DNA from: Thermincola carboxydiphila
GTDB lineage: Bacteria; Bacillota; Thermincolia; Thermincolales; UBA2595
Length of the DNA stretch: 64,000 bases
Direction of reading: 5' to 3'
NCBI GenBank assembly: GCA_016841325.1
Contig: JAENZJ010000017.1
Location: 1 to 64,000, forward strand
In this document: one piece after another, positions 211 through 35,799 of the stretch
Layout: each line of letters starts with the position of its first letter
Position numbering within the stretch: position 1 is the first letter of the stretch
The notes under the pieces: model-generated
The model's database searches: none
What the model was told of the DNA's origin: nothing
What the model saw: only the letters and a program-made list of their open reading frames with translations
Position numbers and translations under genes: made by a program

Positions 211-1284
211 ATGGTTGTAAAACAGTTTAAGGAAGAAATGACAGGTTTGGAAAGGGCTCTGGCTGCCCTGTCCTACAAGAAGCCGGACAGAGTGCCTGTG
301 GCCTCACTGGTCTGCGGGGCATCCAGGAGAATCCTCGGGGTTACTTATGACAAATGGGCTACTGATTCCGAGCTTTGTGCAGAGTCAATGTTACAGGCTC
401 ATGCACTAATGGACTTTGATATTTTTGTAACCCTGGTAGACCTGTCTGTGGAAGCAGAATCCTTTGGGCAGCCGGTTATCTACCCAATGGAGAGTACTCC
501 CTATTCTGACCCCAATAATCCGATTCTGAAGTCCCATGAAGATTACCATAAAATTGAGCAGGTTAACCTCAGGGAAACCGGGCGGACTAAAATGGTAATT
601 GATGTGGTTAACAGGATTGCCAAGGCCAAGGGTAAGGAGTGCGGTGTCTGCGGCTTCGTTTATGCCCCGCTGGGGGTACTCGGCGCTATGAGGGGCCATG
701 AGAAAATGTTTGTTGACTGTATCAAGCACCGGGATGATCTGATAGCTGCCTGTGAGGCCATAACACCTGCACTGATTGATTACGCTGTTGCCCAGGTGGA
801 GGCAGGCGCTCATGCAATTGTAATGGATACCCTCTATGCTTCAGCAACCATTATGAGTCCCAAAATGTGGGAAGCCATTGAAGCTCCTTTTGCCAAGCGG
901 ATTGCCGATGCCGTTAAAAAGGCCGGGGGCGCTCTGGTACTGCATAACTGTGGTGGCGGTATTTACTTTGATGTTCAGCAGAAATATACGGACCCTGTGG
1001 CCATATCACATGCTTACCCGGCTGCTGACTGCAAGACCTGGGAAGAGCATGCAGCCAAATGGGGCAAGAAAATTGTTTCAATTGGTTCAATGGATCCCGC
1101 AAAAGTGGGCATGACCCTTGACCCGCAGGGTGTAATGGAATATACCCGGGAGTTCATTGAATACTTTAAGGACTGTGATGGCGGCTTTATCCTTTCAACA
1201 GGCTGCGAATTCCCGCCAAATGGTTCTCTGCTTAATGCAATAGCAATTATGGATGCTGCCAAGGCATATGGTTCATACCGTTAA
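211..1284 (+). CDS. MtaA/UroD-family corrinoid methyltransferase
   Basis: A 357-residue protein of the uroporphyrinogen decarboxylase / MtaA-MtbA family. In that family such enzymes move a methyl group between a corrinoid protein and a thiol or another C1 carrier in the cytoplasm. The zinc-thiolate ligands typical of the methyltransferase branch are visible: H245-x-C247 in LHNCGG and C332 in STGCEFP; true UroD enzymes lack this HxC...C set. The ATG follows an AGGAGGG site at about 197-203. A CobW-like GTPase and a corrinoid protein follow on the same strand, supporting a methyl-transfer role. The natural methyl donor (methanol, methylamine, methoxyaromatic, betaine) cannot be read from this gene alone; the substrate-specific partner is probably upstream of the window. 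Confidence 0.88.
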   Translation: MVVKQFKEEMTGLERALAALSYKKPDRVPVASLVCGASRRILGVTYDKWATDSELCAESMLQAHALMDFDIFVTLVDLSVEAESFGQPVIYPMESTPYSDPNNPILKSHEDYHKIEQVNLRETGRTKMVIDVVNRIAKAKGKECGVCGFVYAPLGVLGAMRGHEKMFVDCIKHRDDLIAACEAITPALIDYAVAQVEAGAHAIVMDTLYASATIMSPKMWEAIEAPFAKRIADAVKKAGGALVLHNCGGGIYFDVQQKYTDPVAISHAYPAADCKTWEEHAAKWGKKIVSIGSMDPAKVGMTLDPQGVMEYTREFIEYFKDCDGGFILSTGCEFPPNGSLLNAIAIMDAAKAYGSYR

Positions 1285-1304
1285 AGGCTTTGGAAGTGAC
1301 GCAT

Positions 1305-1410
1305 TTAACAGAAAGTAACGCAATTAACAGAAAGTAACATTTAACAGAAAGTAACGCAATTATACAACTATATAAGTTAACGCTGAGAATATATAAGTTA
1401 ACACTGAAAA
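1305..1410. repeat. two families of short tandem repeats in an intergenic gap
   Basis: TTAACAGAAAGTAAC occurs three times without mismatch (1305-1319, 1324-1338, 1341-1355), with 4 and 2 bases between copies. A second unit, TATATAAGTTAAC plus a CTGA(G/A)AA tail, follows twice (1369-1389, 1390-1410). All five copies contain TTAAC or GTTAAC. The array fills most of the gap between the methyltransferase and the CobW-like gene. It could be a regulator-binding array or replication-slippage sequence; neither is shown. Confidence 0.85.
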
Positions 1411-1457
1411 GCAAGAGGCAACCTGCAAATATGCCTTTGAAAGGCGGGGGTGGAACC

Positions 1458-2342
1458 TTGAAGATTAAAATAATCAGTGGATTTTTAGGGGCCGGAAAAA
1501 CAACCTGCATAAGAAATGTTTTGAAGAAGGCCGATGGAAACATGGCTGTCATTGTTAATGAATTTGGTGACGTCGGGATTGACGCAGAAGCCGTCAGTAA
1601 AGGTGATGTGGTCGATATGGTGGAACTCCCCAGCGGATGTATCTGCTGTACCCTGGCCAATGACCTGGTGTCAGCAGTCAAGGAGATTAAAACCAAATTT
1701 AATCCGGACCGGCTGGTCATAGAGCCGTCAGGACTGGCAGTACCCTCGGGGATACTGGAAGCTCTGGAGCCGATAAAAGAAAAATATGAACTTGAATTTG
1801 AAGCAATTATTGGTATCGTGGATGCTGACAGTTTCCTGTCCAATGTCCATTCCGGCTTGTTCGGTGATTTTTATACAGACCAGCTTGCCAATTCAGACAT
1901 TATCCTGATCAACAAAGCCGACCTGGTAAATGAAAAGACTATCAAAGCCGTTGAGGAAGAATTGCGGAAATATAATTCCCATGCCATTATGCTGACAACG
2001 GTTAACTGTGAAACCGACCTGCCTGACTTTATCAGGGAGCACGGTACCGAATACCTGCACCTGCATTTTGACCATGATTTTGATTCAGTTGCCATAACTA
2101 ATGATGAGGCTTTTGACCATGACTTGCTGGCTGAGATTATGGAAGAAATGAAGGCAGGGAAATATGGCGTTATTTACCGGGCCAAAGGAATTTATAAAAA
2201 GAGCGGCGGCGGGTTTGAAAAAATGGATTATGTCCAGGGCAATTACGATTTTGAAGAATTCCCCAGTGCAGAAGGAAGCAAGCTTATCTTTATCGGAAAA
2301 GACTTTGACCGGGAAGCACTAAGAGAAAGGCTGACAACTTAG
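1458..2342 (+). CDS. CobW/G3E-family metal-binding GTPase
   Basis: A 294-residue P-loop GTPase of the G3E (CobW/HypB/UreG) class, which load or deliver metals and cofactors. Seen: Walker A GAGKTT close to the N terminus, the CxCC metal motif in SGCICC, the guanine-specificity motif NKAD, and a His/Asp-rich LHLHFDHDFD segment that could bind metal. I place the start at the TTG at 1458, preceded by AAGGCGGGGGTGG, rather than the ATG nine codons earlier, which has no ribosome site. Its position between a corrinoid methyltransferase and a corrinoid protein suggests a job in zinc or corrinoid loading of this system; that is inference. Confidence 0.85.
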   Translation: MKIKIISGFLGAGKTTCIRNVLKKADGNMAVIVNEFGDVGIDAEAVSKGDVVDMVELPSGCICCTLANDLVSAVKEIKTKFNPDRLVIEPSGLAVPSGILEALEPIKEKYELEFEAIIGIVDADSFLSNVHSGLFGDFYTDQLANSDIILINKADLVNEKTIKAVEEELRKYNSHAIMLTTVNCETDLPDFIREHGTEYLHLHFDHDFDSVAITNDEAFDHDLLAEIMEEMKAGKYGVIYRAKGIYKKSGGGFEKMDYVQGNYDFEEFPSAEGSKLIFIGKDFDREALRERLTT

Positions 2343-2370
2343 TTTAAATTATTTGGAGGAGGTTACAAAA

Positions 2371-3033
2371 ATGGCAGACAGGAAAGCAGAATTACTGGAA
2401 GCTTTAAAGCAGGGAGTTATTGATTATGATGAGGATGCAGTAAAAGAAGCGGCTCAGGCTGTAGTTGACGAAGGTATCGATGCTTATGATGCAGTATTTG
2501 ACGGTCTTGTTGAAGGTATGAACGAAGTTGGCCGGCTGTATGAAGAGCAGGAGTATTTTGTTCCTGAAATGCTGATGTGTGCAGATGCCCTGTATGCAGG
2601 ACTGGATATCCTGAAGCCCCATATCGTGCAAAAAGAAGGCGGCGTTAAAGGTGCTGTGGTAATGGGAGTCGTCCAGGGTGACGTTCATGACATCGGCAAA
2701 AACATCGTTAAGATGATGTTCGACGTAGCCGGCTTCGATGTCCATGACCTGGGCCGTGACGTTCCCATGGACAAGTTTGTTGAAGAGCAATTGAAAACTG
2801 ATTCCGAACTGGTTCTTCTCTCAGCTATGATGACAACTACCATGGTTGGTATGAAAGACATCATCGCCAAGATCAAGGAAAAGAACCCTAAGTGCAGGAT
2901 TATGATCGGCGGGGCCCCTGTTTCTGAGGATCTGGCTGACAAGTGGGGCGCTGACGGCTTTGCCAAGGATGCTAACAATGCCCTGAAAGATGCCCTGAAC
3001 ATGGTTAAGGCTCTGAAAGACCTGCAGCAGTAG
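2371..3033 (+). CDS. corrinoid protein (MtaC/MtbC/MetH B12-binding type)
   Basis: A 220-residue methyl-carrier protein. The N-terminal half resembles the helical cap domain of MetH-type modules; the C-terminal half is a Rossmann-like B12-binding domain with the base-off/His-on signature D-x-H-x-x-G in GDVHDIGKN, followed by later elements such as IMIGGAPVS. The cobalamin histidine is in GDVHDIG. It would shuttle a methyl group on cobalt between a substrate-specific methyltransferase and the MtaA-like enzyme at 211. The ATG at 2371 is preceded by a near-perfect TTGGAGGAGG; an in-frame TTG at 2353 lies inside or before that site and is rejected. The activating ATPase (RamA-like) is not in the window. 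Confidence 0.92.
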   Translation: MADRKAELLEALKQGVIDYDEDAVKEAAQAVVDEGIDAYDAVFDGLVEGMNEVGRLYEEQEYFVPEMLMCADALYAGLDILKPHIVQKEGGVKGAVVMGVVQGDVHDIGKNIVKMMFDVAGFDVHDLGRDVPMDKFVEEQLKTDSELVLLSAMMTTTMVGMKDIIAKIKEKNPKCRIMIGGAPVSEDLADKWGADGFAKDANNALKDALNMVKALKDLQQ

Positions 3034-3087
3034 TTTCCCCGGTGCAGTCGGTGAACAAATATTGCCTGCAGAATTTATAAGCAAAAA

Positions 3088-3170
3088 TGTGACAAAGGTA
3101 AACCCGTTGAAAGACGGGGACACAAAGCCATGGGTCTAAGGTACTGTTGCTATGACTGCCAGGCTGCCGG
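3088..3170 (+). promoter_or_regulatory. c-di-GMP-I (GEMM-I) riboswitch upstream of a chemoreceptor
   Basis: The GEMM-I layout is recognisable: AAGGTAAA, a hairpin CCCGTT-GAAA-GACGGG (3103-3118) with a GAAA tetraloop, GGACACAAAGCC (consensus GACGCAAAGC, one change), a P3 helix holding the 11-nt tetraloop receptor as TCTAAG (3135-3140) opposite TATGA (3151-3155), then GCCAGGCTGCCGG. The receptor differs from CCUAAG/UAUGG by a compensating C-G to U-A swap. A 17-bp hairpin follows 5 nt later and the chemoreceptor gene starts 86 nt after the aptamer. Ligand binding is inferred from family resemblance; whether it turns expression on or off is not decided. Confidence 0.88.
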
Positions 3171-3174
3171 ATTA

Positions 3175-3255: not shown

Positions 3256-4890
3256 TTGGAAAAACAGATATATAAACTCAATTTTTTGGAAAAACTCGGC
3301 CTCGAGGGTCACGTATTTACCCGCGTGAGTTTTAATCTTAAGTACATATTTCCTGCAGTATATGCTTCTCTATTGATCTTCCTGGTACCTGCGGTACTGT
3401 ACCAGGGTAAATGGAATTCCCTGAGCACAATTCTGCTGGTTATTTCCCTGGGAGGTCTGGCAATTAATGTTGTTATAGGCAGTAAAGTAAAAATCCTGAA
3501 GAATTTTTCCGGTATCCTGCACCCTATATGGGCGTATACAACAATTGTTTTATTTGGGCTGGTTTCAGGGTTAAACATGGTGGACTGGATCCTGGCGGCC
3601 GGTTTTGTTGTTTTTGGCATAATTTATTGGTGGATTCCCAGTGCCGGTATGTCAAATGCTATCCGAGCCATATTAAACGGTATTGTCCAGGCTAATTCAG
3701 GTGATACAGATGCCCGGATCTGCCTCAGGGTTAAAAGAAAAGATGAAATCGGGATGCTGGCAGAAAACTTGAACTCATTCTTTGAAGAAAGGCAGAATTT
3801 TATCAAAATGCTCCAGGAGAATGCGTCACAACTGGCCGAGACGAGTACTGAACTGGCCAAAATTTCTGACAGCAGCTCAGCTGCTTTCAGACAAATTGCG
3901 GCTGCCATTGACCAGGTGGCACAGGGTTCAACCGAGCAGTCAAAGAGTACCAGTGAGGCTGTTGAGGTTATGGGACAGGTGGCCATGTCTATAGAGCAGA
4001 TCGCGACCGGTGCCCAGGAACAGAGTAACAATGTGGTCAAAACCACTGCTCTGGTTGATGAGATGACAGCCAAAATGGACCGGATGGCTGCCGGTATGCA
4101 AACTGTCAGGGAGGTTTCGGAACAGAACGGAGTGCTGGCCCAAAATGGCGGAAAGTCAGTAAATAAAACCGTGGAGGGGATGAACAGGGTCAGGACAGCT
4201 GTCCTGGAGACTTCACAAAACCTGAACCAACTGGGGGAAAGGTCACAAAAGATCGGGGAAATCATCCAGGTAATTGACGATATTGCCGAACAGACCAACC
4301 TCCTGGCGCTGAATGCAGCCATCGAAGCGGCCCGTGCCGGTGAGCACGGTAAGGGCTTTGCTGTGGTGGCAGATGAGGTCAGGAAACTGGCCGAGCGGTC
4401 CGGAAAGGCCACCAAGGAGATTGCTGACCTGATAACAGATATTCAGCAAAGGACCAAGACTGCTGTCGACTCCATGGAAATTGGGACCCGGGAAGCCGCA
4501 GAGGGAGTCGGGCTGGCTGAAGAAGCCGGGCAGTCTTTAAGTGAAATCGTAAATGGGGTTGCTACTGCAGCTGATAATGTAGGCAAAATTACGGATATTA
4601 TTAATGAGATAATCGAGAGCAGCCGCGAGGTTTCCGATGCAGTCAGCAATGTTGCTGCCATAACTGAGGAAAACTCTGCGGCAGCAGAGCAGATATCTGC
4701 TTCCAGTGAACAGGTTAATGCCACCGTACAGAATGTCGCCTCCATATCCCAGGAGAATGCTGCCTCTGTGGAAGAGGTATCGGCATCAACAGAGGAACTG
4801 GCCGGTTCTATTGAAAATATCTCGACATCAGCCAAAGGGCTGACCACGATGGCTGCCCGGATGCAGGAACTGGTAAATCAGTACAGGTAG
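3256..4890 (+). CDS. methyl-accepting chemotaxis protein without an extracytoplasmic sensor domain
   Basis: A 544-residue chemoreceptor. About four hydrophobic helices lie in residues 28-130 with only short loops, so the usual large outside ligand domain is missing. A HAMP-like linker (about 130-185) leads to a long signalling coiled coil whose conserved tip is at about 335-385 ([18 protein letters not shown]). The tip binds CheA/CheW and methylation helices flank it. The TTG start has a GGGAGGG site 7-13 bases upstream. A c-di-GMP riboswitch precedes it, so its amount is probably tied to c-di-GMP. It may sense membrane state, energy or a cytoplasmic signal; the stimulus is unknown. Confidence 0.93.
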
Positions 4891-4979
4891 AAAATTAACC
4901 TCTTATCGCGGAAATGTTTAAAATTTTCCAGTATTGTTCATAATAATGCTGGGTATAATCCGGGAAGGAGGTTGATAGT

Positions 4980-5765
4980 TTGAAAAAAATTGCTTTAATT
5001 AGCATAATTATGGTTGCCATTGTTTTTTCAGCCTGTTTTGCATATGCAGGTGAAACTGCCGGTTATACGGTAAAACCCGGGGATACCCTTTATGGAATAG
5101 GAAAACGATTTGGCTTGCACCACAGCGCAATCATAGAAACCAATAAATTGGATTCTACTGTTATCGTGCCTGGAATGAACCTGATTATACCTTCAGGTGA
5201 AGGTGTTTTCCATACTGTCAGGGCAGGGGAAACACTCTACGGTATTTCAAGGAAGTATGGTATCCGGGTCCGGGAGATTAAAAAACAAAATAATCTTGCC
5301 ACTGACCTGATTGTCCCCGGTATGCAGCTTGTCCTGCCGGTCGGCAGCGGTGCAGCGGACCAGCAGGTCCAACCGGTACTCAGTGGTTATACATCTTTTG
5401 GCAGTGATGATATTTTGCTGCTGGCAAAAATGATTTATGCCGAATCCAGGGGTGAGCCGCTCAGCGGCCAGATAGCTGTAGGTGCGGTCATATTAAACAG
5501 GCTGAAGAGTGAGCATTTCCCTTCAACAATCAGGGAAATCATTTTTCAAAGGACTAAAGGTGTGTATCAGTTTACCCCTGTGGCAAATGGACAGATTAAT
5601 ATGGAACCCGACCGTTCTGCCTTTTATGCCGCTGAACGCGCCATAAAAGGGGAGGATCCCACAGGCGGGGCGCTCTTTTTCTATAATCCGGAGACAAGTT
5701 CGGATAAGTGGATTAAGACACTGCCTGTCACAAAAGTAATTGGCAACCATGTATTTGCCAGATAA
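4980..5765 (+). CDS. secreted LysM-SleB/CwlJ-type cell-wall hydrolase
   Basis: A 261-residue exported protein with a signal peptide (about 1-23, likely cut after AYA), two LysM peptidoglycan-binding domains (about 28-71 and 78-120, each with a PGDTLYGI/AGETLYGIS start) and a C-terminal hydrolase of the SleB/CwlJ family (about 143-261). The likely catalytic Glu is E155 in YAESRGEP. Family members open the spore cortex at germination or act on vegetative wall. The TTG start follows AAGGAGG. A possible -10 TATAAT lies at 4954-4959. It ends at a two-way terminator facing the lysR gene. Confidence 0.88.
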   Translation: MKKIALISIIMVAIVFSACFAYAGETAGYTVKPGDTLYGIGKRFGLHHSAIIETNKLDSTVIVPGMNLIIPSGEGVFHTVRAGETLYGISRKYGIRVREIKKQNNLATDLIVPGMQLVLPVGSGAADQQVQPVLSGYTSFGSDDILLLAKMIYAESRGEPLSGQIAVGAVILNRLKSEHFPSTIREIIFQRTKGVYQFTPVANGQINMEPDRSAFYAAERAIKGEDPTGGALFFYNPETSSDKWIKTLPVTKVIGNHVFAR

Positions 5766-5770
5766 GCAAA

Positions 5771-5800
5771 AAAAAAGAGAGCCTAGTAGCTCTCTTTTTT
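5771..5800. terminator. bidirectional terminator between convergent genes
   Basis: AAAAAAGAGAGC, loop CTAGTA, GCTCTCTTTTTT: a 12-bp stem with A- and U-runs on both sides, so it works in both directions. The last codons and stop of the minus-strand LysR gene lie inside it. Confidence 0.9.
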
Positions 5801-6670
5801 AATGTGTGACAAAAAGGCCAGGGCCGCCGGGGAAAGGTGAACTCCTTTGGGGAAAATACAGAGCAGCTGCCTGTTCATTTGCAGTTCAGGAAAACCGGGG
5901 GCACATAAAAGGCCGGTCTGCAGTTCCAGTCCCACGGTGAACCTGGACAGAAAAGTAATCCCCATCCCAGCCATGACGGCCCTTTTTACAGCCTCGGTGT
6001 CGCCCAGGGTGACAACCCTGCCGGGTTTGATATGGACACTTTCCAGAATTGATTCCAGGGCCTTCCTGGTGGCTGAACCCAGTTCCCTTAGAATAAAAAC
6101 CTCATCAGCAAGCAGTTCCGGTTGAAATGCGTCTGTTTTGGCTAAAGGATGGTCCGGGTATACCAAAAAAAGAATCCGGTCCTCAAGGATTGGTTCAATA
6201 CACAGTCCCGGAGGTTCGGCAATACCTGCGATAAAGGCCAGGTCAAAATCCCTGTTGGCAGCTCTGGCGGCAATTTCATCACTGCTGCCCAGTTCCAGGA
6301 AGGCCTCAATGTTGGGGTGCAGCTTTAGAAAAGTGGCCAGTGGTGTGGGCAGTAAATAGCTGCCCATTGTTGTACAGGCCCCAATACTCAGTTTCCCGGT
6401 ATGCAGGCCCTGCAGTTCCTGCAGGGTCCTGTCAGCCTCATCAGCCAGCCGCAGCATCTGTTCAACATATTCAAACAGCCTCCGGCCGGCTTCACTCAGG
6501 TAAACGCCACGGCTGTGCCTGTTAAACAGGCTTATTCCCACTGATTTTTCGAGGGATTCAATCTGGCGGGACAGGGCCGGCTGTGTAATGTGGAGTCTTT
6601 CGGCCCCTTTGCTGAAGCTGCCGGACCTGGCAATTTCATAAAATGCCCTGAGCTGGGATAATTCCATCAT
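5783..6670 (-). CDS. LysR-family transcriptional regulator
   Basis: A 295-residue regulator with an N-terminal winged helix-turn-helix (about 1-60; ITQPALSRQIESLE is the recognition region) and a periplasmic-binding-protein-like effector domain. It is transcribed away from selD, and the 143-bp gap between them holds a 34-bp sequence that recurs upstream of the membrane selenoprotein gene at 11002. This makes it the obvious candidate regulator of both units. The effector could be a sulfur or selenium metabolite by analogy with CysB/CysL-type regulators, but nothing in the sequence proves this. The start is an ATGATG pair preceded by AGGTGG; the first ATG is used here. Confidence 0.92.
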   Translation of the reverse strand: MMELSQLRAFYEIARSGSFSKGAERLHITQPALSRQIESLEKSVGISLFNRHSRGVYLSEAGRRLFEYVEQMLRLADEADRTLQELQGLHTGKLSIGACTTMGSYLLPTPLATFLKLHPNIEAFLELGSSDEIAARAANRDFDLAFIAGIAEPPGLCIEPILEDRILFLVYPDHPLAKTDAFQPELLADEVFILRELGSATRKALESILESVHIKPGRVVTLGDTEAVKRAVMAGMGITFLSRFTVGLELQTGLLCAPGFPELQMNRQLLCIFPKGVHLSPAALAFLSHIKKESY

Positions 6671-6723
6671 GCCACCACCTGAAGAAGTGTTAAGGAGTAT
6701 CAGTATGATATAATTAATATTTA

Positions 6724-6757
6724 TAACTGGTATGATGATTATGCATTTCTATTATAT
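6724..6757. promoter_or_regulatory. putative LysR operator, copy 1 (lysR-selD gap)
   Basis: A 34-bp A/T-rich sequence with the core ATTATGCATTTC flanked by TATGAT and ATTATAT. It matches 30 of 34 positions of 10881-10914. The flanks form an imperfect inverted repeat (ATNAT...ATTAT), the usual shape of LysR-type binding sites (T-N11-A). It is placed correctly for autoregulation of lysR and activation of selD. Confidence 0.7.
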
Positions 6758-6813
6758 CACTACATGTGGTAATATGTAAAATATAAGTTCAGTGAGAAAA
6801 GAGGTTATTTATA

Positions 6814-7857
6814 TTGAAAGAGAAAACTGCTGTCAGGTTGACAAGTTTTTCACCGGGCTCCGGCTGAGCCTGCAAAATAGATCCGGCGGATCTAAAACAG
6901 ATTCTGACCAGTCTCCCCAAAATCGAGGATAAACGCTTTTATACTGAGGACGCTGATGATGCGGCGGTCTTTAAGGTCAGTGAAGACCTGGCAATGGTCC
7001 AGACCGTTGATTTTATCACCCCTGTCTTAAATGACCCCTATTCCTTCGGAGCGGTAGCAGCTGCGAATGCCTTAAGTGATATATATGCCATGGGAGCTGA
7101 ACCGGTTTTTGCTTTAAATATAGTCTGTTTTCCCGTAAAAAGCCTCGCAGTCAGTATCCTTGAAGAAATCCTGCGTGGCGGGGCCGATGTTGCTGCAAAG
7201 GCAGGGGTAACCATCGCCGGGGGGCATTCTGTGGAAGACAATGCGCCCAAATATGGGATGGCTGTTACGGGTACCGTGAATCCCGAAAAATTGTTATTTA
7301 AAAAAGGGGCGCGCCCCGGAGATAAGCTGTACCTGACCAAACCTTTAGGGTCAGGGATTATAACAACAGCCATTGACCGCGATTTAGCCGGGGCAGAGTT
7401 GATAACAAAGGTCTATGACCTGATGGTGGAACTAAACCGCGGCGCCGCCAGGGCTATGCTGGAAGTTGGTGTCAATGCCTGTACCGATGTGAGCGGGTTT
7501 GGCTTCCTGGGCCACCTTTATGAGATGCTTGCTGCAGGCAGGACGGGCGCCCGGATATATACCGGCTCCGTACCGGTCATTGATGCGGTCTGGGATTTGG
7601 TCCGTTCCGGGATAGTACCTGCCGGAACTCATAATAACTACCGTTACCTGGCAGATAAAGTCAGGTCAGATAAAGTACAGTCCGAAACCCGGACAGTCTT
7701 ATGTGATTCCCAGACATCCGGAGGGCTGTTAATTGCAGTATCACCTGAAAAGGCAGCTCAGCTGGAAACATCACTGATTGAAGAAGGGTGCCTGGCAGCG
7801 GCCTGTGTGGGGGAAATCACTGACGGGCCTATGGGTATTATAGAGCTTTGGCCATAA
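6814..7857 (+). CDS. selD: selenophosphate synthase, itself a selenoprotein (Sec18)
   Basis: SelD makes selenophosphate from selenide and ATP for selenocysteine and selenouridine. The reading frame begins at a TTG (6814) behind a GAGG site and passes an in-frame TGA at 6865-6867: residues 15-21 read GSG-U-ACK. This is exactly the active-site position held by Cys17 in the E. coli enzyme (GAGCGCK, from memory), and the conserved Lys follows. The full length is 347 residues, the normal family length. Starting at the ATG at 6994 would lose the catalytic loop. A SECIS-type hairpin follows the UGA by 10 nt. Later family motifs are present (DDAAV, VQTVDF, GGHS, DVSGFG). It is the first gene of a selD-nifS-dsrE unit. 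Confidence 0.95.
6878..6894 (+). promoter_or_regulatory. bacterial SECIS hairpin of selD
   Basis: TAGATCC-GGC-GGATCTA: a 7-bp stem with a GGC loop. The loop begins 17 nt after the UGA at 6865-6867, and G's open the loop, both as expected for bacterial SECIS elements read by SelB. Confidence 0.85.
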
Positions 7858-7914
7858 CCGCATTCTTTTATTACCATAATTTTTAGCACATTTGCTGTTA
7901 TAGGAGGAATTTTG

Positions 7915-9057
7915 GTGACACCTGTATATATGGACTATAATGCAACAACACCCGTTGCTTCTGAGGTTGCCAGTGAAATGCTGCCTTATATTACCGAATA
8001 TTTTGGAAATCCCTCAAGCGGTCATATTTATGGAGCTAAAACCAAAGATGCCGTAATCAGGGGGAGGCAGCAGGTAGCTGATTTGTTAGGCTGTCTGCCT
8101 AAGGAAATTGTCTTTACCAGTGGTGGAAGTGAGGCCGACAATCTTGCCCTTAAGGGAATTGTGTATGCAAACAAAAACCCGAATGGGCACATTATTACCT
8201 CTCAAATTGAACATCCGGCCATTTTAAATACATGTAAAAGTTTAGAGCAACAAGGGTATCAGGTAACTTATCTTCCGGTTGACCATACAGGTACGATAAA
8301 TCCTGAGGATGTAAGAAAAGCGGTGACAAAGGACACTGTTCTGATAACAATAATGCACGCAAACAATGAAGTGGGTACCATTCAATCACTTTCCCAAATA
8401 GGGGAAATCGCCCGGGAGCAGAACATTTGTTTTCATACAGATGCAGCGCAGTCGGTTGGCAAAATTCCCACTAGGGTGGATGAGCTGAAGGTTGATTTGC
8501 TGACCCTGGCAGGACACAAGTTTTATGGGCCCAAAGGTATAGGGGCTCTCTACGTCCGTTCCGGAATAAATATTGAACCCCTTATTTGCGGAGCCAGCCA
8601 GGAGGGAGGATTGAGGGCGGGTACAGAAAACGTTGCCGGTATTGTGGGCTTGGGGAAGGCATGTCAACTGGCGGTTCAGGAAATGGAGCAGCGTGTAACG
8701 GAAATGACTGAGCTGGGCAGGTTGTTTTATCAGCTACTGGCAAAAGGGATTCCGGGAGTTGTTCTTAACGGGCATCCTGAAAATAAGCTGCCTAATACTT
8801 GGAATATAAGCTTTCAGGGTATAAATGCGGCAGAATTACTGGCAGTTGTTCCTGAAGTTGCTGCTTCAACAGGCTCAGCATGCCACCATGGGTCCCAAAC
8901 TCTGTCCCCTGTTTTGGCAGCTATGGGTATTGAGAAAGAAAGGGGAATGAGTTCCATCAGGTTTTCGTTGGGATGTGAAACTAATCGTGAACAGGTTCTG
9001 CACGCTGCTGAAATAATTATTGCAAGAGTCAAAAATATTTTAGGGAAGGAGGGATAA
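7915..9057 (+). CDS. NifS-like cysteine desulfurase / possible selenocysteine lyase
   Basis: A 380-residue PLP enzyme of the class-V aminotransferase fold. The PLP lysine is K202 in AGHKFYGPKG and the nucleophile C323 lies in STGSACHHGS. Such enzymes take S from cysteine or Se from selenocysteine as a bound persulfide or perselenide. The GTG at 7915 has AGGAGG 7 nt upstream; a TTG one codon earlier is too close. Lying between selD and a selenoprotein DsrE, it probably feeds Se (or S) to them rather than serving general Fe-S assembly; no iscU is nearby. Substrate choice is inference. Confidence 0.88.
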   Translation: MTPVYMDYNATTPVASEVASEMLPYITEYFGNPSSGHIYGAKTKDAVIRGRQQVADLLGCLPKEIVFTSGGSEADNLALKGIVYANKNPNGHIITSQIEHPAILNTCKSLEQQGYQVTYLPVDHTGTINPEDVRKAVTKDTVLITIMHANNEVGTIQSLSQIGEIAREQNICFHTDAAQSVGKIPTRVDELKVDLLTLAGHKFYGPKGIGALYVRSGINIEPLICGASQEGGLRAGTENVAGIVGLGKACQLAVQEMEQRVTEMTELGRLFYQLLAKGIPGVVLNGHPENKLPNTWNISFQGINAAELLAVVPEVAASTGSACHHGSQTLSPVLAAMGIEKERGMSSIRFSLGCETNREQVLHAAEIIIARVKNILGKEG

Positions 9058-10880: not shown

Positions 10881-10914
10881 TAACTAATATGATAATTATG
10901 CATTTCAATTATAT
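10881..10914. promoter_or_regulatory. putative LysR operator, copy 2 (upstream of membrane selenoprotein)
   Basis: This sequence matches 6724-6757 at 30 of 34 positions, including the unbroken core ATTATGCATTTC. It lies 88 bp upstream of the ATG at 11002, a usual distance for a LysR activator site, and marks the start of a second transcription unit. Confidence 0.7.
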
Positions 10915-11001
10915 GTAGGGTTATGGTAAGATAGGACCAACTCATAAATGCAGGACTGTAACTACTACCTGCTTAAATACTACAGGAAGGAGAAAGACAC
11001 C

Positions 11002-12126
11002 ATGAAGTTTAACCCATTTAAGTTTCAGGTACCTCTGGCTGCAGGAGGGATCTCATTGATGGCCTTTAATTATCTGCAGTATGCCGTGCCACATGGGGAG
11101 GGCTTAATCAGACTGTCAGATATGCAGTGGGAGAAACTCAGTACGGTTCAAAATTTCTTATATCTTTTTTTGACGGCAATCATGTTGCTTTTTACTGTCA
11201 TCAGCCTGGTTTCCACTGTTATCCTGTTAAAAAGCCTAATAATATGGCTTATTAACAGGGAGGAATATTCCGCATTCATGAACGGGCCCCCGACAATGAG
11301 TATCGGTATTTTTGTCCCCATTGCCTCCATGTCCATGATAGCAAATGTGGTCCTGGCCCCCCTGGCGTTTTTTGTTCCTGAAATATCATCAAATATACAA
11401 TCCTTAATGCTTCCTGGATTGATTTTCTTTGGCTGCCTCTGGTTGATTCTTTTTGCCCTTGAATTCAAGTTTCTAAAAAATTGGCTTACCCGGCCTCTTG
11501 ACGGGACCAAATTAAACTTTGTGTGGCTGCTTGATGTCTTCGCCTTTGGTCTGGTTAACCTGACCGGTACAGGAATAGCATCCATGGCTGCCGGTAAAGA
11601 AGTTTCATCAATAGCTGCCTTTGCATCATTGCTGGCTTTGGGTGTTGGTCTGTTTTTACTGGTTACCAAACTTGGCTACCTGGTTTACCTACAGCTGAAA
11701 TCTGTCAGCCTGCCGCAGGACGCAGTACTTCCCAGCTATTTTATCATGATCCCCATTATCTGTTTGTTTGGTATAAGTCTTCTGAGACTGACCCAGTATT
11801 TACAGATACACTTTAGCTTTAATACAGAAGTGATTTCCTTCCTTTTAATCAATTTTTCATATGTTTGTGCTATTGGCTGGGGTATCTTCAGTGTTTATTT
11901 ACTCAGCAGTTACTTCAGGAAATACTTCTACAGGAGTGAATTTTCCGCAACCCAGTGGGCTATGGTCTGAGCTTTTGTTGGCTCCCAAGTTTTGGGGGTT
12001 TATGTCTACGCAAATTATTTTCCCAATGCAGTTCTTTCCACAGTAAATTATATCAGCGTAATCCTTGCATCTGTCATGTATGCTGTTGTTTTTGGCAAGT
12101 TTTATCAGGCTCATAAGACTAAATAA
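11002..12126 (+). CDS. ten-helix membrane selenoprotein (Sec323), TsoY-like
   Basis: The frame opens at an ATG behind AGGAAGGAG and meets TGA at 11968-11970. Without a break it continues 51 sense codons to TAA at 12124, adding two more hydrophobic helices. Read as Sec, the protein is 374 residues with about ten membrane helices; U323 sits in WAMV-U-AFVGSQ at the start of helix 9. A SECIS-type hairpin follows. The ten-helix plan recalls TehA/SLAC1-type channels, and I recall a family named 'TsoY family (seleno)protein' that fits, but cannot check either. It heads an operon with an HdrE-like and an HdrD-like gene, so a role in membrane redox chemistry or transport of a sulfur/selenium species is plausible. 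Confidence 0.88.
11982..11998 (+). promoter_or_regulatory. bacterial SECIS hairpin of the membrane selenoprotein gene
   Basis: CTCCCAA-GTT-TTGGGGG: a 7-bp stem with one U-G pair. The loop opens with G and starts 19 nt after the UGA at 11968-11970, matching the spacing of the other two SECIS hairpins in this locus. Confidence 0.8.
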
Positions 12127-21929: not shown

Positions 21930-23249
21930 ATGAAACCAGTAACTGTAATTGGTGCCGGGCTGGCGGGTTCAGAGGCAGCCTGGCAGCTTGCTGCCAGGGA
22001 TGTCCGGGTCAGGTTGTTTGAGATGAGGCCGGTAAAAAAGTCCCCGGCACATCATACCGACATGTTTGCTGAGCTTGTATGCAGTAACTCCCTGAGGGGA
22101 AGTTCTCTGGAGAATGCAGTCGGTTTATTAAAGGAAGAAATGCGCCGCCTTGATTCGGTAATTATGAGGTGTGCCGACAATACTTCTGTACCGGCAGGAG
22201 GGGCTCTGGCCGTTGACAGGGAGGAATTTGCCCGGCAGGTCACAGAAGCGGTATCGGGTCACCCTAATGTAGAAATAACCAGAAAAGAGATTACCCAAAT
22301 TGATACTGATAACCCGGTGATAATTGCCACCGGGCCTTTGACATCTGATACCATGTCAAGCGCCATCATGGAAATCACCGGTTGTGAATACCTTTATTTT
22401 TATGATGCGGCAGCTCCGATAGTTACCCTGGAATCCCTGGACCACAGCAAGGTCTTCCGGGCTTCCAGATATGATAAGGGTGAGGCTGCCTATCTCAATT
22501 GTCCCATGGACAGGGAAGAGTATGAGAGGTTCTGTCAGGAACTGGTAAATGCCGAGTGTGTTCCCCTGCAGGAGTTTGAAAAAGAGATATTTTTTGAGGG
22601 TTGTATGCCTGTGGAAGAACTGGCTGCCCGGGGACCACGGACGTTACTGTTCGGACCCTTAAAGCCTGTGGGCCTGACCGATCCCCGTACCGGCAGCAGG
22701 CCCTATGCAGTGGTACAGCTTAGGCAGGACAATATCGAAGGCACTTTATATAATATGGTGGGTTTTCAGACCCATCTCAGGTGGGGTGAACAGAACCGGG
22801 TTTTCAGAATGATTCCCGGACTTGAAAATGCCGAGTTTGTCCGTTACGGTGTAATGCACCGGAACACCTTCATAAACTCCCCGGAACTCCTGAAGCCTAC
22901 CCTTCAGCTAAAAAAGGATGAGAATCTCTTTTTTGCCGGACAGATTACCGGGGTCGAAGGGTATGTGGAATCGGCGGCAATGGGGCTGGTGGCCGGAATA
23001 AATGCCGCCAGGATAACTGCCGGTGATAAGCCGGTCGTTTTTCCTGAGGAAACGGCACATGGGGCATTATGCAAATATATTACCACCCCCGGGGCCAGGA
23101 ATTTTCAGCCTATGAACATCAATTTCGGTCTTTTGCCCCAATTAGGTGAAAAAATCCGGGATAAACGCCTGAGATATGGTAAAATATCAGAAAGGGCCTT
23201 GAACAGGCTTGATGAATTCAGGTCAGCTTTTGAGCCCGGCAAAGTTTAA
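21930..23249 (+). CDS. trmFO: folate/FAD-dependent tRNA (uracil-54) methyltransferase TrmFO
   Basis: A 439-residue flavoprotein that makes m5U54 in tRNA using methylenetetrahydrofolate. The FAD motif is [16 protein letters not shown] at the N terminus; the family segments [18 protein letters not shown] and the [11 protein letters not shown]-terminal region are present. The ATG directly abuts the topA stop codon, so the pair is probably co-translated. Confidence 0.96.
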
Positions 23250-28068: not shown

Positions 28069-28184
28069 AGAGGTTAAAATTGTAGGTTAACATATGGGAA
28101 AAAAATATAAAAATATGTAAGAAAAGGTAGGATTTTTGCAGACAGATGACGAATACACCTCAAAAATACATACCAAACTTTGTT

Positions 28185-28358
28185 CAACGGCAAATTTACC
28201 GAAAGGTAAAGGCGCAAAGCTACGGACCTAGAGGCTTGGTTATGATACCATAATCTTTTTGAGTTATCGGACAAACGGTCATTATATATTTATGATGCTG
28301 GTAACTTCCTTTAGATTATATTACATTTATTAAGAGCTATGGTTGCCGGGCTGCCGAA
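28185..28358 (+). promoter_or_regulatory. c-di-GMP-I (GEMM-I) riboswitch upstream of flgB, with enlarged P3
   Basis: The 5' half is canonical: CGGCAAA, hairpin TTTACC-GAAA-GGTAAA (28195-28210), GGCGCAAAGC (28211-28220), then CCTAGAG (28227-28233), a one-base-expanded form of the CCUAAG tetraloop receptor. The matching 3' half is found about 105 nt later: TATGG (28338-28342) and GCCGGGCTGCCG (28345-28356), nearly identical to GCCAGGCTGCCG in the chemoreceptor riboswitch. The intervening segment would be an insertion at the P3 tip. A terminator follows before flgB. In Clostridioides difficile a GEMM-I switch likewise precedes flgB and turns it off with c-di-GMP. Confidence 0.8.
28238..28260 (+). 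terminator. terminator-like hairpin within the P3 insertion
   Basis: GGTTATG-ATAC-CATAATC, a 7-bp stem with one G-U pair, is followed directly by TTTTT. It lies inside the enlarged P3 arm of the flgB riboswitch and could end transcription before the aptamer is complete. Confidence 0.45.
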
Positions 28359-35547: not shown

Positions 35548-35799
35548 CGGAAATGACCGGGAAATGGCTTATGGTGAGATGTTGTACCGATTTTCCGAAC
35601 TGTCGCCGGAGAAATGTAGCCTTGTTCCTGGCGAAGTCCGGGAACACCGCCAATTCGCCTTCCGTGGCTCAGTGGCGGCGCGGGCCGTCCATGGCCCGCG
35701 TCCCGGACTTCGCTTAGCGGAACAGCGGCGACATATCTCACGGCGCCAGTATAAGGAAAATCTTGTACAACACCTCATCAAATTCCACGGTCATTTCCG
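35548..35799. repeat. 252-bp imperfect palindrome between motE-like gene and fliK
   Basis: Nested inverted repeats fill the gap: outer CGGAAATGACCG (35548-35559) with CGGTCATTTCCG (35788-35799); then 35571-35596 with 35756-35779 (sharing TGTTGTAC and GATTTTCC); then GCGAAGTCCGGGA (35631-35643) with TCCCGGACTTCGC (35701-35713); and at the tip CGCGGGCC/GGCCCGCG (35679-35700). No credible gene lies in 35541-35936. It may be a long MITE-like insertion or an intra-operon RNA hairpin. Confidence 0.85.

What the first reader, a model, noticed from the sequence alone, without database searches (positions are those of the whole stretch)
6814..7857. SelD is a selenoprotein; UGA at 6865 encodes Sec18
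Frame continuity through TGA, exact placement in the GSG-U-ACK active-site loop, normal total length (347 residues), and a GGC-looped SECIS hairpin 10 nt downstream. Standard gene calling would start at 6994 and lose the catalytic N terminus. SelD selenoproteins are known, so the novelty is mainly the correct annotation.
Basis: partly seen in the sequence, partly recalled or inferred. Interest (0 to 1): 0.7.

Follow-up and report, generated by a model that had tools for sequence, protein, structure and literature searches.

The report
Second selenium-containing SelD, own regulon
The gene really does read a stop codon as selenocysteine, which is common for this enzyme, but it is the genome's second such SelD and it shares a probable DNA switch and a conserved neighbourhood with another selenium protein that looks like an anion channel, so it may belong to a small dedicated selenium-handling unit.

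Summary
The frame 6814-7857 is a full-length SelD interrupted only by TGA 6865-6867, followed by a 7-bp hairpin with a GGC loop; selA, selB and selC are present in the genome. In 74 Sec-SelDs the hairpin positions pair (median about 5-6 of 7), and in 44 Cys-SelDs they do not (median 1). As a Sec-SelD it is ordinary: most SelDs in the phylum sample carry the TGA.

That clade travels with a LysR close to the LysR_Se family and with TsoY, a SLAC1/TehA-fold selenoprotein whose Sec codon lies at 11968-11970 in this same window. A 17-bp T-N11-A box, TATGCATTTCNATTATA, lies before both selD2 (6740) and tsoY (10897). These are its only hits with 0 or 1 mismatch in 3.43 Mb, and the box is kept at selD2 in distant relatives.

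Best reading: a LysR-controlled two-selenoprotein unit, SelD2 plus a membrane anion transporter. Regulator binding and the transported ion are inferred. The 2025 paper naming TsoY could not be read, so the linkage may be known already.

The parts
5783..6670 (-). LysR-type regulator, divergent from selD2; closest to the selenium-metabolism LysR family
   Evidence: Best NCBIfam hit NF040786 at 230 bits, just under its cut-off of 250; orthologue divergent from selD2 in L048, L049, L050, L098, L179, L051
6726..6775 (.). Probable LysR operator upstream of selD2; core T-N11-A box TATGCATTTCTATTATA at 6740-6756
   Evidence: Core invariant in the same place in related loci, with one mismatch in L051; 37 of 50 bases identical to the operator before tsoY, no third place in the window reaches 28 of 50
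6751..6780 (-). Sigma-70-like promoter for the LysR gene (TTTACA, 18, TATAAT); its -10 overlaps the box
   Evidence: Consensus scan, 11 of 12 matches; not evidence of function by itself
6814..7857 (+). selD2: selenocysteine-containing selenophosphate synthetase, second copy in this genome, 347 aa
   Evidence: TIGR00476 368 bits; frame and TGA; own clade
6865..6867 (+). Sec codon TGA, residue 18 in GSG-U-ACK
6878..6894 (+). Bacterial SECIS-like hairpin, 7 bp, loop GGC
7912..9057 (+). NifS-like cysteine desulfurase, frequent but not constant neighbour of selD2 and tsoY
   Evidence: TIGR03402 460 bits, under its cut-off of 530.75; present near selD2 or tsoY in L049, L098, L051, L052, L180, L182, L184, no hit in that stretch of G005/G006
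10883..10932 (.). Second probable operator, upstream of tsoY; core box TATGCATTTCAATTATA at 10897-10913
11002..12126 (+). tsoY: second selenoprotein, SLAC1/TehA-fold membrane protein, 374 aa with Sec read through
   Evidence: NF047643 480.8 bits, cut-off 250; PF03595 SLAC1; model resembles SLAC1/TehA structures
11968..11970 (+). Sec codon TGA of tsoY, in the motif QWAMV-U-AFVGSQVLG
   Evidence: TGA conserved in all Sec-type TsoY genes read
11980..12000 (+). SECIS-like hairpin of tsoY, 9 bp including G-U pairs, loop GTT

Best explanation
selD2 encodes a working selenophosphate synthetase with Sec18 at its active site, made by SelB/tRNA-Sec decoding of UGA 6865 with the hairpin at 6878-6894. It is not the housekeeping copy, which sits beside selA on another contig, but the enzyme of a small unit under the divergent LysR regulator. 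That regulator probably binds a T-N11-A operator before selD2 (and, by overlap with its own -10, represses itself) and a near-copy of it before tsoY, so the two selenoprotein genes are switched together. TsoY is probably a membrane anion channel or transporter. A NifS-like desulfurase, where present, would hand selenium or sulfur to SelD2. The unit would take in or put out a selenium- or sulfur-containing anion and activate selenide when selenium status demands it; because both products need Sec, their output also falls when selenium runs short. Shown by computation: the SelD and TsoY families, both UGAs and hairpins, the second canonical Sec-SelD, the synteny, the shared box and its uniqueness. 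Inferred: Sec insertion in the cell, binding by LysR, the effector, TsoY's substrate, the role of NifS. Separate confidences: Sec-SelD 0.98; co-regulation with tsoY by the LysR about 0.75; TsoY as an anion transporter about 0.5; selenium delivery by NifS about 0.4.
For: SelD family and frame; selA, selB, selC; hairpin in Sec but not Cys SelDs; second Sec-SelD in the same genome, 48% identical; clade of the window type separate from the family's canonical SelDs, SH-aLRT 99; tsoY UGA and family; LysR-SelD2-TsoY neighbourhood kept at about 60% SelD/TsoY protein identity in other Clostridia; in the phylum sample 7 of 10 TsoY genomes carry two SelDs against 8 of 193 without TsoY, 3 of 5 against 8 of 191 outside the window's family; box exact at selD2 and tsoY and nowhere else within 1 mismatch in 3.43 Mb, the same two sites in both other genomes of the genus, conserved at selD2 in distant loci; absent with up to 3 mismatches around the canonical selD/selA, selB and selC; SLAC1/TehA fold.
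Against: The LysR scores just under the LysR_Se cut-off. One genome of the genus has a third exact box outside the unit. TsoY occurs without a neighbouring selD2 in three sampled genomes (G003, G099, G356), and the box was not found there. NifS has no hit between selD2 and tsoY in G005 and G006. The tree is the quick version, and relatedness inflates the co-occurrence P values. The TsoY model has mean pLDDT 71 and is least sure around the Sec residue.
Confidence: 0.75

Rival explanations
1. An ordinary Sec-SelD and nothing more: a redundant second copy that adds selenophosphate to the common pool, with unrelated neighbours.
For: Sec-SelD is the common form in the phylum, and 15 of 203 SelD-bearing genomes sampled have two or more copies.
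Against: The copy belongs to an old clade, not a recent duplicate, and keeps LysR and TsoY beside it and a shared box in distant genomes.
Confidence: 0.15
2. The unit answers sulfite or another oxyanion stress rather than selenium supply: the LysR is a sulfite-type sensor, TsoY an exporter, NifS and SelD2 detoxify or reuse the chalcogen.
For: TsoY has the SLAC1/TehA fold; the LysR also scores against YeiE and other LysR families.
Against: Two selenoproteins and a selenophosphate synthetase in one unit point to selenium; NF040786 is the best hit for all six orthologues scanned and for the window copy.
Confidence: 0.2
3. The shared box is bound by another regulator than the adjacent LysR.
For: No binding was tested; two other genes in the genome score over the LysR_Se cut-off.
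Against: The box has the T-N11-A form, overlaps the LysR gene's predicted -10, lies beside this LysR in the loci that have it, and is absent around the other two LysR_Se genes.
Confidence: 0.15
4. UGA 6865 is a true stop or a sequencing error and the gene starts at 6994.
For: Mechanical ORF calling gives 6994-7857.
Against: UGA conserved in all window-type SelDs with conserved residues on both sides; Sec machinery present.
Confidence: 0.01

Closest known systems
Selenocysteine-containing SelD (selenide, water dikinase; solved relatives 3U0O and 2YYE/2ZOD)
   Same: Whole-length match, active-site U/C followed by Lys, nucleotide-binding Asp motifs conserved in the alignment
   Different: Second copy in the genome, own clade, with its own LysR and TsoY
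Selenoprotein TsoY (NF047643)
   Same: Over the family cut-off, conserved Sec motif QWxMVUxxVGSQVLG
   Different: Here tied to a second SelD and a shared operator; whether the naming paper (Haft and Tolstoy 2025, mSystems) reports this could not be read
LysR_Se / HrsM regulators (Lin et al. 2015, PMC5322559)
   Same: Best profile hit; gene next to selD; selenophosphate was suggested as effector for HrsM
   Different: Scores under the curated cut-off; the genome has two other genes over it
SLAC1/TehA anion channels (7EN0, 3M71)
   Same: Fold of the TsoY model and Pfam SLAC1
   Different: 12-14% identity and a Sec residue towards the C-terminus

Membership tests
SelD selenoprotein | Full-length SelD homology over the curated cut-off | tested here: met
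   368 bits against 125
SelD selenoprotein | In-frame UGA aligned with the catalytic Cys/Sec | tested here: met
SelD selenoprotein | SECIS hairpin shortly after UGA, absent from Cys homologues | tested here: met
SelD selenoprotein | selA, selB, selC in the genome | tested here: met
SelD selenoprotein | Sec actually inserted; selenophosphate made | not testable with these tools
   needs protein work
TsoY selenoprotein (NF047643) | Profile score over cut-off and conserved UGA | tested here: met
   480.8 bits against 250; UGA
LysR_Se (NF040786) | Profile score over cut-off | tested here: not met
   230 bits against 250
LysR_Se (NF040786) | Gene beside Se-utilisation genes in Sec-decoding organisms | tested here: met
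LysR-type operator | T-N11-A box in the divergent intergenic region | tested here: met
LysR-type operator | Binding by the adjacent LysR | not testable with these tools
   needs a DNA-binding assay

The most novel reading that the evidence does not exclude
LysR, SelD2 and TsoY form a dedicated selenium acquisition or homeostasis unit: TsoY, itself Sec-dependent, moves a selenium anion, SelD2 activates it, and the selenophosphate formed is the signal read by the LysR. It would be a candidate for the selenium transport system that a 2022 review says is still missing (PMC9312934).
Probability: 0.2. Interest if true: 0.75.

Novelty: new variant of a known kind. Interest (0 to 1): 0.45.

Why it matters
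A 2022 review states that no high-affinity selenium transport system has been identified in prokaryotes (PMC9312934), and the effector of LysR_Se regulators is only proposed (PMC5322559). A compact unit with its own regulator, an exact operator, a selenophosphate synthetase and a Sec-containing anion-channel-like protein makes both questions testable in vitro. It also corrects two gene models in one 64-kb window: under ordinary calling selD2 loses its catalytic N-terminus, and tsoY loses its Sec and the 51 residues after it.

Tried and rejected
Rfam search of 6780-7000 gave only chance-level matches. Single-sequence folding of 61 nt was not significant (z -0.76), so the SECIS case rests on the Sec/Cys comparison and the synonymous-codon test. 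Two other TGA-plus-hairpin candidates in the window, 22358 (-) and 34483 (+), were rejected: the first lies antisense to the ORF 21930-23249, the second just before what looks like the start of the next coding sequence. A selenium-cofactor role for SelD2 was considered: yqeB is absent from this genome and its genus. A selenouridine role was considered: selU is present in all ten genomes of the class searched, including those with one SelD or none found, so it does not explain the second copy. The third exact box in G006 lies beside a GerAC-like and a histidine-kinase-like frame and is unexplained or chance. The PDB sequence search with the TsoY profile found nothing. Haft and Tolstoy 2025 is not held. 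The covariation count on eight loci alone is weak (37 of 500 shuffles reach it).

Full report
What is there. Window 6814-7857 is an open frame for SelD broken only by TGA at 6865-6867. Read through, it is 347 aa and scores 368 bits to the SelD family, cut-off 125; table-11 calling begins at 6994. The TTG start is matched by TTG or ATG at the same codon in relatives, with purine-rich sequence upstream. Ten bases after the TGA lies TAGATCC-GGC-GGATCTA (6878-6894).

Is the UGA decoded? The genome (3.43 Mb, 49 contigs, 99% complete) has one SelB over the cut-off, one SelA and tRNA-Sec with anticodon TCA. The nearest named relative, at 90% SelD identity, is a Thermincola ferriacetica MAG. In every relative read, the codon is TGA or Cys. 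At the seven stem positions, 74 Sec-SelDs pair at about 5-6 of 7 in the median, 44 Cys-SelDs at 1 of 7; fold energies differ with Mann-Whitney P = 2e-11, relatedness not corrected. With the protein fixed, 0.6% of random synonymous versions pair as well as the window's. Against related loci the stem keeps pairing through a G-C/A-U double change. I take Sec18 as near certain (0.98) by sequence; no protein was seen.

It is the second Sec-SelD. The same genome has another SelD beside selA, also with one TGA, 48% identical. In a phylum sample, nearly all listed SelDs carry one TGA, and 15 of 203 SelD genomes have two or more copies. The window type forms its own clade of eight (SH-aLRT 99, quick tree), apart from the family's canonical SelDs. 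The genomes behind the related loci L048-L052 and L098 all have two SelDs. So this is an old paralogue, not a fresh duplicate.

A second selenoprotein in the window. The ORF ending at 11970 stops at a TGA that reads on into a conserved C-terminal stretch, to TAA at 12124-12126. It is TsoY, NF047643, 480.8 bits. The TGA at 11968-11970 is conserved in the Sec-type relatives and followed by a hairpin at 11980-12000 with a GTT loop; the synonymous-codon test is weaker here (2.5%). Pfam gives SLAC1. A predicted model, mean pLDDT 71, matches SLAC1 and TehA structures at E about 1e-3, TM-score to the query mostly 0.54-0.59, 12-14% identity. The region around the Sec is among the least sure, so its place in the fold cannot be told.

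Conserved unit. A LysR gene (5783-6670) is divergent from selD2 and scores 230 bits to the selenium-metabolism LysR family, just under its cut-off of 250; six relatives score 221-246 and that family is always their best hit. LysR, SelD2 and TsoY lie together in L048, L049, L050, L098 and L179; in L180 they lie within 8 kb with the NifS-like gene. NifS is frequent but not constant. Of ten genomes of the phylum sample with a Sec-type TsoY, seven have the window-type SelD within 10 kb, and G003, G099 and G356 do not. Two-SelD genomes are enriched among TsoY carriers: 7 of 10 against 8 of 193, and 3 of 5 against 8 of 191 outside the family; these counts ignore relatedness.

Shared operator. The LysR/selD2 intergenic region keeps TATGCATTTCNATTATA, a T-N11-A box, between loci whose LysR proteins are as little as 41-46% identical to the window's, with a single mismatch in L051. 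In the window there are two exact copies, 6740-6756 before selD2 and 10897-10913 before tsoY, and no others even with 3 mismatches. In the whole genome these are the only hits with 0 or 1 mismatch; three more have 2, while the reversed control pattern has two hits. A base-composition estimate expects 0.003-0.017 exact hits per genome. Both other genomes of the genus have the same two sites; one has a third elsewhere. Around the two sites in the window 37 of 50 bases agree, and no third place reaches 28. The first box overlaps the -10 of the LysR gene's predicted promoter, as would suit self-repression. The box is absent around the canonical selD/selA, selB, selC and the other two LysR_Se genes.

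Mechanism. Most likely: the LysR senses a selenium signal (selenophosphate was suggested for the related HrsM, PMC5322559), switches selD2 and tsoY together, and UGA decoding adds a second dependence on selenium. SelD2 makes selenophosphate; TsoY moves an anion; the NifS-like protein may hand over selenium. Steps after the operator are inference. The strongest rival is an oxyanion (sulfite, tellurite) response, which the fold allows.

Known or new. Sec-SelD is one of the commonest bacterial selenoproteins (PMC13188914). TsoY is listed there, with Haft and Tolstoy 2025 as source, which I could not read. I found no account of a second Sec-SelD tied to a LysR and TsoY by a shared operator in the papers searched, but full texts outside the library were not seen. 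I rate the gene as ordinary and the unit as a new variant of known parts.

Noticed in passing
window 10948-12126 (+): tsoY ends at TGA 11970 under ordinary calling but reads on 51 residues after the Sec; a second selenoprotein not named in the finding.
   Followed up: yes
window 3087-3171 and 28179-28358 (+): Two c-di-GMP-I riboswitches (81.5 and 62.3 bits); the first lies just upstream of a chemotaxis-receptor-like gene at 3256-4890.
   Followed up: no
window 35596-35753 (-): TwoAYGGAY RNA at 43.4 bits, barely over its gathering score of 43.
   Followed up: no
window 211-3033 (+): MtaA-like methyltransferase, CobW-like GTPase and corrinoid protein in a row, a likely methyl-transfer cluster.
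   Followed up: no
L129 (G003) 4867-8061: tsoY without a neighbouring selD2, but with a LysR and two small frames in between, one ferredoxin-like membrane frame and one with CGGC cysteines.
   Followed up: partly
L199, G006:C31:126604-126620: Third exact copy of the operator box in one genome of the genus, beside GerAC-like and histidine-kinase-like frames; unexplained.
   Followed up: partly
L183, G198:C97:6866-7996: A TsoY-family protein without TGA and without LysR, SelD2 or NifS nearby.
   Followed up: no
G000:C13:150095 and G000:C28:73350: Two further LysR genes over the LysR_Se cut-off, so the genome may have three selenium-type LysR regulators.
   Followed up: partly
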